Shown in pieces: positions 1,741-6,203 of a stretch of DNA of 11,285 bases. Source of the DNA: Clostridiaceae bacterium (GTDB taxonomy: Bacteria > Bacillota_A > Clostridia > Clostridiales > Clostridiaceae); contig JAQSXU010000106.1 of NCBI GenBank assembly GCA_029256485.1, forward strand, positions 1 to 11,285, in the 5' to 3' direction. The first letter of the stretch is position 1. Every line of letters begins with the position of its first letter. A program made the position numbers and the translations under genes. Under the pieces are notes generated by a model. It made no database searches. It was not told the origin of the DNA and was given only the letters and a program-made list of their open reading frames with translations.

Positions 1741-2352
1741 TTATTTATAATCTCTAAATAATCCAATCAACTTGCCAAGTATTTGACAGTCATTTACTAT
1801 TATTGGGTTCATAGTTTTATTTTCAGGTTGAAGACGTATATGATCCTTTTCTTTATAAAACCTTTTGATTGTGGCTTCATTTTCTATAAGTGCAACAACA
1901 ATTTCACCATTTTCTGCAGTATTCATTTGCTCAATAATTGCTAAATCGCCATTATAAATGCCGGCATCAATCATGCTTTCGCCTTTAACTTTAAGCATAA
2001 AAAGCTGATTATTGCTTTTTATATAATTGATAGGTATAGGAAAAGAATCCTCTATATTTTCTATTGCTAAAATTGGTTTTCCAGCAGTTACAGTTCCAAC
2101 AATAGGAATGTCCACTAACTCTTTTCTTATGGACGTTTCTTCCAAGACTTCTATAGCTCTTGGTTTAGTTGGATCTCTTCTGATTAATCCTTTTTTCTCT
2201 AATCTTGCTAAATGACCATGCACAGTAGATGTAGAACTCAGGCCTACAGCGCTGCAGATTTCTCTAACAGAAGGTGGATAACCTTTTAAATGTATTTGAC
2301 TTTTTATGTAATCATATATTTCCTTTTGTTTCGAAATTTTAGGTTCGGTCAT
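1741..2352 (-). CDS. lexA: LexA, SOS response repressor
   Basis: LexA represses DNA-damage genes and cleaves itself when stimulated by RecA filaments. The 203-residue protein has an N-terminal winged helix-turn-helix (about 1-70, with the recognition region near [14 protein letters not shown], 39-52) and a C-terminal S24 peptidase-like domain. The whole self-cleavage apparatus is present: the scissile Ala90-Gly91 pair, the nucleophile Ser126 in the KGESM motif, and the general base Lys163 in ATIKRF. Length matches the usual 200-210 residues. The start at 2352 is supported by a GAGG ribosome binding site 9 bases upstream. Its promoter carries a LexA box, so it is very probably autoregulated. 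It is convergent with the PLP enzyme gene and divergent from the Cys-rich protein gene. Confidence 0.97.
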
Positions 2353-2523: not shown

Positions 2524-2988
2524 ATGAAAGAAAAAAAGTGTATATTTGATGATAATAAATTCTGCGATGATTGCGGAAAATGTGATGTTTGTGATTTAGA
2601 CCCAAATAAAAAATGCAACAACTGCGGTAAATGTTTAGAAGAGCAGGGGATAGATATAAAAGCAATTAAAATAGACGAAATTATTGAAGATGAAAAGTAT
2701 GCAAATGAAATTCAACATGAAGAAGCTAATTTAGAAGCAGATTCAGATGATAACGGCAATGATGATTATTCTAATAATGAATATTTAGATGATGATTACT
2801 CAAATGAAGATAATAACGATGATTATCACGATGAGGATTATGTTGACGTCATGGATATGAATGTGGAATTTATCGATGATATTAATGGACTAAATGAGGT
2901 GTTAGAAGATAACACTAAGTCAGATAATTTATTTGAAGAAAAATTCCCTGGATTAATAAAATTTAAGCCGTCAAAATATAAAAATTAA
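2524..2988 (+). CDS. Hypothetical protein: N-terminal cysteine cluster plus long acidic region
   Basis: I do not recognise a named family. The 154-residue protein has eight cysteines, all in the first 37 residues: Cys6, then Cys14, 17, 20 and 23 spaced by two, then Cys31, 34 and 37. Two of these blocks read CxxCGKC, which looks like a metal-binding (zinc or Fe-S) module. From about residue 48 to 135 the protein is extremely acidic (about 34 Asp/Glu in 90 residues, many in DD pairs, with Asn and Tyr), with no hydrophobic core, so it is probably disordered. A short C-terminal part (PGLIKFKPSKYKN) becomes basic. No signal peptide or membrane segment is seen. The start has an AGAGGG ribosome binding site 7-8 bases upstream and a clear promoter of its own. 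It is divergent from lexA. A metal-sensing or protein/nucleic-acid-competing role can only be guessed. Confidence 0.82.
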   Translation: MKEKKCIFDDNKFCDDCGKCDVCDLDPNKKCNNCGKCLEEQGIDIKAIKIDEIIEDEKYANEIQHEEANLEADSDDNGNDDYSNNEYLDDDYSNEDNNDDYHDEDYVDVMDMNVEFIDDINGLNEVLEDNTKSDNLFEEKFPGLIKFKPSKYKN

Positions 2989-3028: not shown

Positions 3029-4015
3029 TTATTCTTCCTCATCGCTGAGAGGATTAGAATTTACAGCTTCTCTAAGTTTTTCATCATCGACATGTGTATA
3101 AATTTGAGTAGTTGAAACATTCTCATGTCCCAATATCTTTTGCAGACTTCTAATATCCACATTGCCATACTTATACATTAAAGTAGCAGCAGTATGGCGT
3201 AGTTTATGAGGAGTATATTTCTCTACATCCAAATCAGATTTTTTTAGATACTTTTTTAACATTAATTCAACAGATCTTTTATTAATTCTGGTATAATTCT
3301 TACTAATAAATAGGGCGCTCTTGTCCTTAATTTTGTCGAAATCTAAATTTCTCACTTGTAAATAACTATTTAATGCTTTAATACATGCGTTATTTAAATA
3401 CACCGTTCTTTCTTTATTACCCTTACCAATTACAGTGAGAGTATCTTCTTTTAAATTTGAAATATCAATTCCGCATAGCTCTGAAAGTCTTAATCCGCAA
3501 TTTAAAAATAGGGTGATAATGCAATAATCTCTTTCTTTATATTTGCCATCAATAGATCTAAGCAAACTCTTGCTTTCATCTAAAGTAAGATAGATAGGGT
3601 TTCTCTTACTTATTTTTGGAGATTCTAACTCAATGGCAGGGTTTTCATCTACTATTTTTGCTTTGCCCTGAAGATATTTAAAATATGACTTTAAAGTAGC
3701 TACTTTTCTAGCCCTAGCATAATTTCCATTATTTCTATAATTCTCAGCAAAGGCTATAAAGGCATATAAGTCCTGTAGACTTATATCTCTAATAAGCTTA
3801 TTATCAATATCATTGATTTTTATGGTCTCAAAGCTATCTGTTTGTTTAGCTAGGCCTTTGTACAATTTTAAAAATCTAAAGAACATTGTCAAATCAACTT
3901 TATAGCCATTTATAGTATTGCTGGATTTACCTCTGATCGTATCTAAATAATTTATAAAATCATTAACACTTCTTGGTAAATCCGGATCAAAAACATTTTT
4001 CAAATCATATTTCAT
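3029..4015 (-). CDS. xerC: Xer-family tyrosine recombinase
   Basis: This is a site-specific recombinase of the XerC/XerD type, which cuts and rejoins DNA through a covalent phosphotyrosine; Xer pairs resolve chromosome dimers at dif. The 328-residue protein has an N-terminal SAM-like core-binding domain (about 13-115, containing SSNTINGYKVDL) and a C-terminal catalytic domain (about 138-315). All catalytic residues are visible: Arg176 in GLRLSEL, Lys198 in GKGNKER, His270 and Arg273 in HKLRH, His297 in LGHEN, and the nucleophile Tyr306. It is 20-30 residues longer than typical XerC/XerD, with an acidic C-terminal tail. GGAGG at 4027-4023 sets the start. The dif-like site 592 bases upstream of its start suggests that this is the dimer-resolution enzyme. 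Whether it is the XerC or the XerD partner cannot be decided, so the gene symbol is provisional. Confidence 0.9.
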   Translation of the reverse strand: MKYDLKNVFDPDLPRSVNDFINYLDTIRGKSSNTINGYKVDLTMFFRFLKLYKGLAKQTDSFETIKINDIDNKLIRDISLQDLYAFIAFAENYRNNGNYARARKVATLKSYFKYLQGKAKIVDENPAIELESPKISKRNPIYLTLDESKSLLRSIDGKYKERDYCIITLFLNCGLRLSELCGIDISNLKEDTLTVIGKGNKERTVYLNNACIKALNSYLQVRNLDFDKIKDKSALFISKNYTRINKRSVELMLKKYLKKSDLDVEKYTPHKLRHTAATLMYKYGNVDIRSLQKILGHENVSTTQIYTHVDDEKLREAVNSNPLSDEEE

Positions 4016-4053
4016 TATTTCGCCTCCATATTACAATAAAAAACAGGGTCAAC

Positions 4054-4088
4054 TTCGCTAAATGGTTATTTAGCGAATATAATATTCG
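4054..4088. repeat. Two overlapping palindromes in the xer leader
   Basis: The first is a perfect inverted repeat with ten-base arms TTCGCTAAAT (4054-4063) and ATTTAGCGAA (4068-4077) around GGTT. The second, with arms CGAATAT (4074-4080) and ATATTCG (4082-4088) around one base, shares its left arm with the end of the first. They lie 39-73 bases upstream of the xer start codon, so an operator or a leader-RNA switch for xer is plausible. No U tract follows directly, so this is not a simple terminator. Confidence 0.7.
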
Positions 4089-4132
4089 ACGTAGGGGAGC
4101 GAAAATCCTTCTTTTTTCAATAAATTTTTTAT

Positions 4133-4606: not shown

Positions 4607-4634
4607 ATTATCTATAATATATATTATGTAAACT
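4607..4634 (+). other. dif: dif-like chromosome dimer resolution site
   Basis: The 28-base site splits into a left (XerC) arm ATTATCTATAA, a six-base centre TATATA and a right (XerD) arm TTATGTAAACT. Compared by hand with the B. subtilis dif as I recall it, 24 of 28 positions match, including the whole centre and the whole XerD arm; all four differences are in the XerC arm, which is also the more variable arm in known dif sites. It lies in a gene-free region, 27 bases from the purB terminator and near a Xer recombinase gene. Gene orientation changes around it, as expected at a replication terminus. Confidence 0.85.
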
Positions 4635-4660
4635 TCATAATATATATTGTTTTAATATAA

Positions 4661-4720: not shown

Positions 4721-6151
4721 TTATACATTTATTTCTGCTTCAATGCCAAGACTTTCTTTATTTGACTCCAGCAAAGGTTTTACTTGTTCAGCTATAAAAT
4801 CATCAACTTGACCTGCAGCTCTTCCAGTAAATTTTTTTGGATCAATTAAAGACAATATTTCCTCTCTTGAAAGTCCAAAGGATTTATCATTAATTATTCT
4901 TGCAATTAAGTCGTTATTCAGTCCTAACTCCTTAACCCTCTTTCCGGCTTCCATAGAATGCATTCTAATTTTTTCATGAAGATCCTGTCTGTCTCCACCT
5001 CTTTTTACACATTCCATTAGAATATTTTCTGTAGCCATAAATGGTAATTCATTATTGACATGAGATTCAATAACCTTGTCATATACTACTAAATTGCTGC
5101 TTATGTTTAAATACAAGCTAAGCACTCCGTCTAAAGCAAGAAAAGCTTCAGGAACTGCTATTCTCTTATTAGCAGAATCATCAAGAGTCCTTTCAAACCA
5201 CTGTGTTGCTGCTGTTATAGCTGGATTTAATGAGTTGACAATTATATATCTGGATAAAGCTCCTAATCGCTCACTTCTCATTGGATTTCTCTTATATGCC
5301 ATAGCAGATGATCCTATTTGATTTTTTTCAAATGGCTCTTCTATTTCCTTCATGCTTTGAAGAAGCCTAATGTCATTACTAAACTTATAAGCACTTTGCG
5401 CAATTTCAGAAATAGTATTTAGTATTATTGAATCAACTTTTCTAGGATATGTTTGGCCTGTAACCATAAATTCTTTACTAAACTCCATTTTATTTGTAAC
5501 TATCTTATCTAGCTTTTTTACAAGCTCTTCGTTACCATTAAATAGTTCCATAAAACTTGCTTGGGTACCTGTAGTTCCCTTAACACCCCTAAATCTCAAA
5601 TTATCAATAACATATTCTAAATTTTCAACATCAAGGAGTAAATCTTGAATCCACAGTGTAGCTCTTTTTCCAACAGTTGTTAACTGAGCTGGTTGAAAAT
5701 GAGTAAAACCTAAAGTAGGCAATTCTTTGTATGTTACAGCAAACTTTGATAAAGCATTTATCACATTTATAACTTTTTTCTTAATTAAAAGCATTGCTTC
5801 TCTCATTATAATTAAATCTGTATTATCCCCAACGTAACAGCTTGTTGCTCCAAGATGAATTATGCCCTTTGCACTTGGGCATTGAACTCCATAGGCATAC
5901 ACATGGCTCATTACATCATGTCTTACAACCTTTTCTCTTTCCTCTGCAACTTCATAATTTATATTATCTTTATAAGCTTTGAGTTCATTTATTTGTTCTT
6001 CAGTTATCGGTAGTCCTAATTCCCTCTCCCCTTCAGCTAAAGCTATCCATAATCTTCTCCAGGTTTTAAATTTCATTTCCTCTGAAAATAAATAGCTCAT
6101 TTCTTTAGAAGCATACCTAGTATTCAGTGGAGTATTATATATATTTCTCAT
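4721..6151 (-). CDS. purB: Adenylosuccinate lyase
   Basis: PurB carries out two beta-eliminations that release fumarate: SAICAR to AICAR, and adenylosuccinate to AMP, in purine synthesis. The 476-residue protein belongs to the fumarase/aspartase superfamily. Landmarks are the TSCYVGDNTDL block (about 103-113), His151 in THFQPAQ (expected general acid), and the signature loop GSSAMAYKRNP at about 280-290 with the catalytic serine. Human-type PurB normally has Pro where this loop has Ala. At 476 residues it is longer than the ~430-residue B. subtilis enzyme, and stretches such as WFERTLDDSAN and ELPFMATENI resemble animal ADSL as I recall it. A start at 6199 would add 16 residues, but AAGGAGA (6167-6161) lies inside that extension, 9 bases before ATG 6151, so 6151 is chosen. 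It is not next to other purine genes. Confidence 0.95.
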   Translation of the reverse strand: MRNIYNTPLNTRYASKEMSYLFSEEMKFKTWRRLWIALAEGERELGLPITEEQINELKAYKDNINYEVAEEREKVVRHDVMSHVYAYGVQCPSAKGIIHLGATSCYVGDNTDLIIMREAMLLIKKKVINVINALSKFAVTYKELPTLGFTHFQPAQLTTVGKRATLWIQDLLLDVENLEYVIDNLRFRGVKGTTGTQASFMELFNGNEELVKKLDKIVTNKMEFSKEFMVTGQTYPRKVDSIILNTISEIAQSAYKFSNDIRLLQSMKEIEEPFEKNQIGSSAMAYKRNPMRSERLGALSRYIIVNSLNPAITAATQWFERTLDDSANKRIAVPEAFLALDGVLSLYLNISSNLVVYDKVIESHVNNELPFMATENILMECVKRGGDRQDLHEKIRMHSMEAGKRVKELGLNNDLIARIINDKSFGLSREEILSLIDPKKFTGRAAGQVDDFIAEQVKPLLESNKESLGIEAEINV

Positions 6152-6203
6152 AATCAATTTTCTCCTTACGCATAATAATATGTATTCTGTATAATTCATT
6201 CAT

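What the first reader, a model, noticed from the sequence alone, without database searches (positions are those of the whole stretch)
4607..4634. A dif-like site next to a Xer recombinase: the window probably spans the replication terminus
The 28-base site matches the B. subtilis dif (from memory) at 24 of 28 positions by hand count; centre and XerD arm are identical and all differences lie in the XerC arm. It lies 592 bases upstream of the xer start codon. In bacteria with XerC and XerD the genes usually lie far from dif; close linkage is known for single-recombinase systems (XerS/difSL, XerH/difH). A canonical XerC/XerD-type site linked to a Xer gene is therefore notable.
Basis: partly seen in the sequence, partly recalled or inferred. 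Interest (0 to 1): 0.75.

Follow-up and report, generated by a model that had tools for sequence, protein, structure and literature searches.

The report
Symmetric dif site beside clostridial Xer
The reported dif-like site is real and lies near where chromosome copying ends, but an overlooked palindrome right next to the xer gene looks like the site this enzyme really recombines, in a one-enzyme version of the system seen in many Clostridia and apparently borrowed by filamentous phages.

Summary
The 28-mer at 4607-4634 is real: 24 of 28 match the recalled B. subtilis dif; 300 shuffles reached at most 22. The terminus reading is supported through relatives only, since the window's own genome is not held: in three complete Clostridium chromosomes the local cumulative GC-skew maximum lies inside the orthologous xer (2) or 4.4 kb away (1), and skew converges on xer in 53 of 57 loci. 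Such a site lies within 700 bp upstream of the lexA-linked xer in 57 of 72 loci, stays near the skew peak in two genomes where it is 5-6 kb from xer, and separates filamentous-phage genes from Xer in seven contigs. Relatives' XerD orthologues carry Lys for catalytic Arg-I in 39 of 46; the lexA-linked Xer keeps Arg in 80 of 80. Best reading: a single-recombinase Xer/dif system with a symmetric dif beside its gene; the 4607 site is more likely a XerD-binding site or old dif. Binding, recombination and XerD inactivity are inferred. New variant of a known kind.

The parts
3029..4015 (-). xer: lexA-linked tyrosine recombinase, 328 aa, with the residues R176, K198, H270, R273, H297, Y306
   Evidence: hexad alignment
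4052..4079 (.). proposed symmetric dif: ACTTCGCTAAA-TGGTTA-TTTAGCGAATA, 10 of 12 arm pairs matched, 36 bp upstream of the xer start codon
4084..4111 (-). sigma-H-like promoter (consensus recalled) 32 bp ahead of the palindrome, reading towards xer
4616..4648 (.). 13-bp perfect inverted repeat (4616-4628 / 4636-4648) overlapping the 4607 site
1741..2352 (-). lexA, conserved neighbour of xer
4721..6157 (-). purB (adenylosuccinate lyase), on the other side of the two sites; start at 6157 chosen, the ORF runs to 6199

Best explanation
The window spans the replication terminus of a Clostridium. The lexA-linked Xer is probably the only Xer of the terminus with a full active site, and it probably recombines the 28-bp symmetric site at 4052-4079 beside its gene (two like 11-bp arms round a 6-bp asymmetric centre), one protein species filling both arms, to resolve chromosome dimers. 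Filamentous phages of Clostridia appear to use the same site to integrate. The canonical dif-like site at 4607 keeps a perfect XerD arm; because XerD of the relatives looks catalytically impaired, this site more likely binds XerD (for example as an SMC-unloading mark) or is a relic of a former XerCD dif. Shown by computation: position at the skew turn in relatives, presence and conservation of the symmetric site, its juxtaposition to phage genes, active-site residues. Inferred: binding, recombination, dimer resolution, XerD inactivity, any role of the 4607 site.
For: Terminus. Symmetric site: palindromes (12-4-12, 11 or more pairs) reach 2.71 per kb in the 200 bp upstream of xer (41 loci) and 0.05-0.21 per kb outside the last 600 bp (no sequence model used); a site scoring over 17.5 lies within 700 bp upstream in 57 of 72 loci (the score matrix was made from arms of the same loci). 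Site and Xer distances correlate (Mantel r 0.64, 0 of 2000 permutations, n 68; shared ancestry contributes). In 22 genomes 10 copies of TTCGCTAAAT-N4-ATTTAGCGAA with 0-1 mismatch lie in 9 genomes, 8 of them beside xer. Where the site is away from xer, the skew maximum is 23 bp from it in G017 (xer 5.2 kb away) and 1.2 kb from it in G018 (xer 5.8 kb away). Seven IMG/VR contigs carry inovirus Rep and/or Zot homologues, then the palindrome, then the Xer gene. XerD Arg-I is Lys in 39 of 46, lexA-linked Xer Arg-I is Arg in 80 of 80, checked against E. coli XerD for one protein.
Against: No wet evidence. The window's own genome, hence its XerD, is not held. 15 of 72 loci lack a scoring site within 700 bp, 8 of 72 in the whole locus; in several Clostridium loci only one arm and the centre are kept. 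In G002 the skew maximum is 4.4 kb from xer, and in L063 it is not at the displaced site. No second copy of the site was seen in the seven phage contigs, so integration rests on one border each; two further inovirus contigs with Xer (L236, L241) show no such palindrome. Six or seven XerDs keep Arg-I, including Acetivibrio and Anaerobacterium which have the palindrome. The window itself has a good XerD arm at 4607.
Confidence: 0.65

Rival explanations
1. The 4607 site is the working dif, recombined by the lexA-linked Xer (acting as XerC) together with XerD; the palindrome is only a regulatory operator through which Xer controls its own promoter.
For: The 4607 site is 24 of 28 identical to the recalled B. 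subtilis dif with a perfect XerD arm. A XerD-model match is present in 19 of 19 relatives. A sigma-H-like promoter stands 32 bp before the palindrome in the window and 31-35 bp before it in 12 of the 14 loci where the motif was found, of 73 examined, which is where an operator would sit.
Against: XerD Arg-I is Lys in 39 of 46, including the nearest named relative G002, which also has Phe for His-II. The palindrome can be 5-6 kb from xer and then sits at or near the skew peak. It borders phage genes in seven contigs. Close matches to the 4607 core were few: with up to 3 mismatches to its 22-base core, hits in 19 genomes were about as many as for the reversed control.
Confidence: 0.17
2. The palindrome is an RNA hairpin or attenuator in the xer leader, not a DNA site.
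For: It can form a 12-bp stem with a 4-base loop, lies just after a likely promoter, and its two arms change together between lineages.
Against: It is found 5-6 kb from xer in two genomes, at -3386 in L027 and beyond lexA in L049 and L050; several loci keep one arm and the centre but lose the other arm, which would abolish a hairpin; phage genes abut it. No Rfam match in the window.
Confidence: 0.06
3. Xer and XerD share the palindromic site: XerD fills one arm without catalysis, and Xer alone makes one strand exchange.
For: XerD is kept as an open frame with Arg-II and Tyr in 46 of 46; some Clostridium sites have one diverged arm such as TTTATTAAACT, which resembles a XerD arm.
Against: 54 of 68 sites have 11 or 12 of 12 arm pairs matched, as expected for one protein species on both arms.
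Confidence: 0.1

Closest known systems
XerS/difSL of streptococci and lactococci
   Same: One recombinase longer than XerC/XerD (XerS 356 aa; here 328), gene next to its site at the terminus (PMC5357621, passages).
   Different: difSL is 31 bp with an 11-bp centre; here 28 bp with a 6-bp centre. XerS model score 161.3 against a cut-off of 267.
XerA/dif of archaea
   Same: 28-bp site of two 11-bp arms and a 6-bp spacer with few or no arm mismatches (PMC2958812, passages); among solved structures XerA is the best sequence match to the window Xer, 127.5 bits.
   Different: Bacterial host; XerA_Arch model score 202.4 against a cut-off of 220; FtsK was not examined here.
XerL/dif of Legionellales
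   Same: Distinct single-recombinase system at the terminus, revealed by a mobile element that integrates at dif (PMC9765430, abstract and one results section).
   Different: Unrelated host group; XerL was not compared here.
XerCD/dif, B. subtilis type
   Same: The 4607 site; XerD-model matches in relatives.
   Different: XerD catalytic Arg-I replaced in 39 of 46; xer gene at the terminus; conserved site symmetric.
Filamentous phages that integrate at dif with host XerCD (CTXphi type)
   Same: Rep and Zot-like genes next to the host recombination site.
   Different: The site is the symmetric clostridial one, beside the Xer gene.

Membership tests
XerCD/dif | 28-bp site with canonical XerD arm and XerC arm | tested here: met
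   4607 site, 24 of 28 to the recalled B. subtilis dif; the 4052 palindrome is a different sequence
XerCD/dif | two catalytically complete recombinases, XerC and XerD | tested here: not met
   tested in relatives only: XerD Arg-I Lys in 39 of 46; XerC over cut-off in 0 of 19, a cut-off passed in only 2 of 14 controls
XerCD/dif | site at the GC-skew turn | tested here: met
   relatives' xer loci; not testable in the window's own genome
XerS/difSL | XerS protein family | tested here: not met
   161.3 bits, cut-off 267
XerS/difSL | 31-bp site with 11-bp centre | tested here: not met
   28 bp with 6-bp centre
XerS/difSL | gene adjacent to its site | tested here: met
   36 bp apart in the window; 57 of 72 loci within 700 bp
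XerA/dif | XerA protein family | tested here: not met
   202.4 bits, cut-off 220
XerA/dif | symmetric 11-6-11 site near the terminus | tested here: met
XerH/difH | XerH protein family | tested here: inconclusive
   XerH chain 52.1 bits, below XerA 127.5 and XerD 117.7; no XerH model was run
any single-recombinase dif system | recombination by one Xer in the absence of others | not testable with these tools
   needs a recombination assay

The most novel reading that the evidence does not exclude
In Clostridiaceae the two jobs of XerCD/dif have been split: a lexA-linked Xer with a symmetric dif beside its own gene resolves chromosome dimers, while XerD has become a non-catalytic DNA-binding protein that marks the terminus at XerD-arm sites such as 4607-4634, perhaps to unload SMC.
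Probability: 0.4. Interest if true: 0.85.

Novelty: new variant of a known kind. Interest (0 to 1): 0.72.

Why it matters
If right, many Clostridia use a chromosome dimer resolution system that the sources seen here do not describe, and dif predictions based on the B. subtilis site may point at the wrong site in them. It gives a simple test bed for a symmetric one-enzyme Xer reaction, an attachment site for filamentous phages of Clostridia, and a natural case for asking whether XerD works at the terminus without catalysis.

Tried and rejected
Whole-chromosome test in the window's own genome: not possible, none is held. Mobile-element remnants as the cause of the many XerD-arm sites: not excluded, not pursued. 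Uniqueness of the 4607 core: a 22-base core with up to 3 mismatches gave hits in 18 of 19 genomes at about the level of the reversed control, so it says little. XerD-arm palindromes TTACATAAT-N4-ATTATGTAA (up to 2 mismatches): 18 of 73 lie within 100 kb of xer against 2.6 expected (entered by hand); G006, G014 and G016 were dropped because their rows were not all printed, 7 of the 16 genomes used have none, hits were treated as independent, and the pattern was chosen after seeing such sites near xer in some of the same genomes. Centre asymmetry: 0 of 68 centres self-complementary, but only 31 distinct centres, so weak. A second exact palindrome in G010 (C5:31080) follows an ABC-transporter operon and is followed by T-rich DNA, so it is probably a terminator; the copy in G023 (C8:246) was fetched but not interpreted. 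Palindrome variants tried in IMG/VR without a match; one match was not followed up. A XerC-type partner was not found, but the XerC cut-off is strict (2 of 14 controls). No structure prediction was run.

Full report
What is there. The window is from a Clostridium-like genome with hfq, an aluminium-resistance/methionine gamma-lyase-like gene, lexA, a small acidic protein, xer, purB, HPr, an aminotransferase and spoVS. The 28-mer of the finding is confirmed at 4607-4634, with 4 mismatches to the recalled B. subtilis dif, all in the XerC arm; 300 shuffles never came below 6.

Terminus. No whole genome is held for the window, so relatives were used. One search gave 80 loci around xer orthologues (the best 80 of 563 matches). 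hfq-ynbB-lexA-xer order is conserved in many of them, whereas the purB side is often broken. In three complete chromosomes sampled at 20 or more places each, the sign pattern is two-armed and the maximum of cumulative skew in the 58-140 kb joined round xer lies inside xer in G001 (C. carboxidivorans) and G003 (C. bovifaecis) and 4.4 kb from it in G002 (Clostridium sp. OS1-26). In G004-G006 samples on the two sides of xer have opposite signs. Of 57 loci with both flanks of at least 3 kb, 53 have positive skew before and negative skew after xer, 50 of them beyond 0.03; none is reversed; L038, L062, L067 and L074 fail. As a control, 1 of 60 other 20-kb samples shows such a turn at its middle. dnaA was not located.

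A second site. A scan for palindromes, with no sequence given, found families of 28-bp sites next to xer. In the window it is ACTTCGCTAAA-TGGTTA-TTTAGCGAATA at 4052-4079. Other lineages have other arms: ATTATACAAAAT, TAGTCACAAAAT, ATGTCGTGAAAT, ATTCAACAAAAT, each with its complement after four bases. Palindrome density is 2.71 per kb in the last 200 bp before xer and 0.51 in the 400 bp before that, against 0.05-0.21 elsewhere. With a matrix built from these arms, 64 of 72 loci with 700 bp upstream have a site somewhere and 57 within 700 bp; 54 of all 68 sites have 11 or 12 arm pairs. Several Clostridium loci keep one arm and the centre only. Site and Xer distances correlate, r 0.64, to which common descent contributes.

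How often in a genome. TTCGCTAAAT-N4-ATTTAGCGAA with up to 3 mismatches gave 30 places in 22 genomes, against 6 for the reversed control; 10 have 0-1 mismatch, in 9 genomes, 8 beside xer. The Acetivibrio-type palindrome with up to 2 mismatches occurs once each in G017, G018 and G001 among 19 genomes; in G001 it is far from xer. In G017 the site is 5.2 kb and in G018 5.8 kb from the xer start, and the skew maxima are 23 bp and 1.2 kb from the site. L063 is a counter-example.

Phages. The palindrome occurs in 9 and 13 stretches of viral contigs and not for three other arm types. I examined 16 of the 80 Xer-bearing viral loci, the best matches plus L308, and L212 and L215. Nine of these 18 have inovirus Rep or Zot homologues; in seven (L212, L215, L235, L240, L243, L244, L247) a palindrome lies between those genes and the Xer gene; L236 and L241 have none of this kind. 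Families were checked for L212, L215 and L222, the same contig as L235. No second copy was found in the seven contigs, and only L212 and L222 continue beyond Xer, so either a prophage at the host site or a phage-borne Xer module is possible; integration at the site is the likelier reading.

XerD. All 19 genomes searched have a XerD-model match, 10 above cut-off. These proteins have Lys for Arg-I in 13 of 19. With 27 more (48 of 59 genomes had a match; loci were given for the best 30) it is 39 of 46; His-II is Tyr, Phe or Asn in 40 of 46; Arg-II and Tyr are kept in 46 of 46. The beta-hairpin Lys is hard to align and is not used. The alignment to E. coli XerD confirms Arg-I to Lys and His-II to Phe in G002 and intact residues in G018. 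Orthology rests on the model, not on gene order. In the lexA-linked Xer, Arg-I and Lys are kept in 80 of 80 and the other four residues in 79 of 80; the deviating row was not examined. A passage in PMC4381057 says Arg-I-mutated Flp (R191A) does not cleave but still synapses. That XerD unloads SMC at the terminus is taken from passages in PMC12322038 and PMC13342612; the original paper (Karaboja 2021) is not held.

The 4607 site. XerD-arm palindromes gather near xer in 9 of 16 genomes (18 of 73 within 100 kb, 2.6 expected, with the limits told under Tried and rejected). The 4607 site, with its perfect XerD arm, fits such a mark, but a working or former dif is not excluded.

Literature. Ten searches listed no paper on a symmetric dif or Xer-dif linkage in Clostridia; this covers the open-licence library only. 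The review PMC5357621 has no word beginning Clostridi in its main text. PMC3025954 predicted dif in 97 of 100 Firmicutes, failing in C. perfringens 13 and C. beijerinckii (passages); which sites it predicted in other Clostridium was not seen, so it may list either site.

Noticed in passing
window 2524-2988 (+): 154-aa acidic protein with a Cys-rich start between lexA and xer, conserved in many Clostridium loci at about 31-67%, without Pfam or NCBIfam match.
   Followed up: no
window 4084-4111 (-): Sigma-H-like promoter (consensus recalled) ahead of xer; 14 of 73 loci have the motif within 700 bp upstream, about 2 expected from the background rate. Xer may be made at the onset of sporulation.
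   Followed up: partly
window 4133, 4422, 4458: TGGGTATAATTA or a near copy three times in the xer-purB gap.
   Followed up: no
L214, L216, L217, L219, L223: Phage contigs, L214 and L223 apparently tailed-phage by their ORFs, carry a host-type palindrome; perhaps used for dimer resolution of phage DNA.
   Followed up: no
G003:C1 1791432, 1801035, 1861641: XerD-arm palindromes with longer perfect flanking arms near the terminus.
   Followed up: partly
59 genomes: 11 of 59 genomes have no XerD match at E 1e-68; XerD may be lost or more diverged there.
   Followed up: no
L222: A XerD-like gene, a membrane protein, Xer, the palindrome and inovirus genes lie side by side on one contig.
   Followed up: partly
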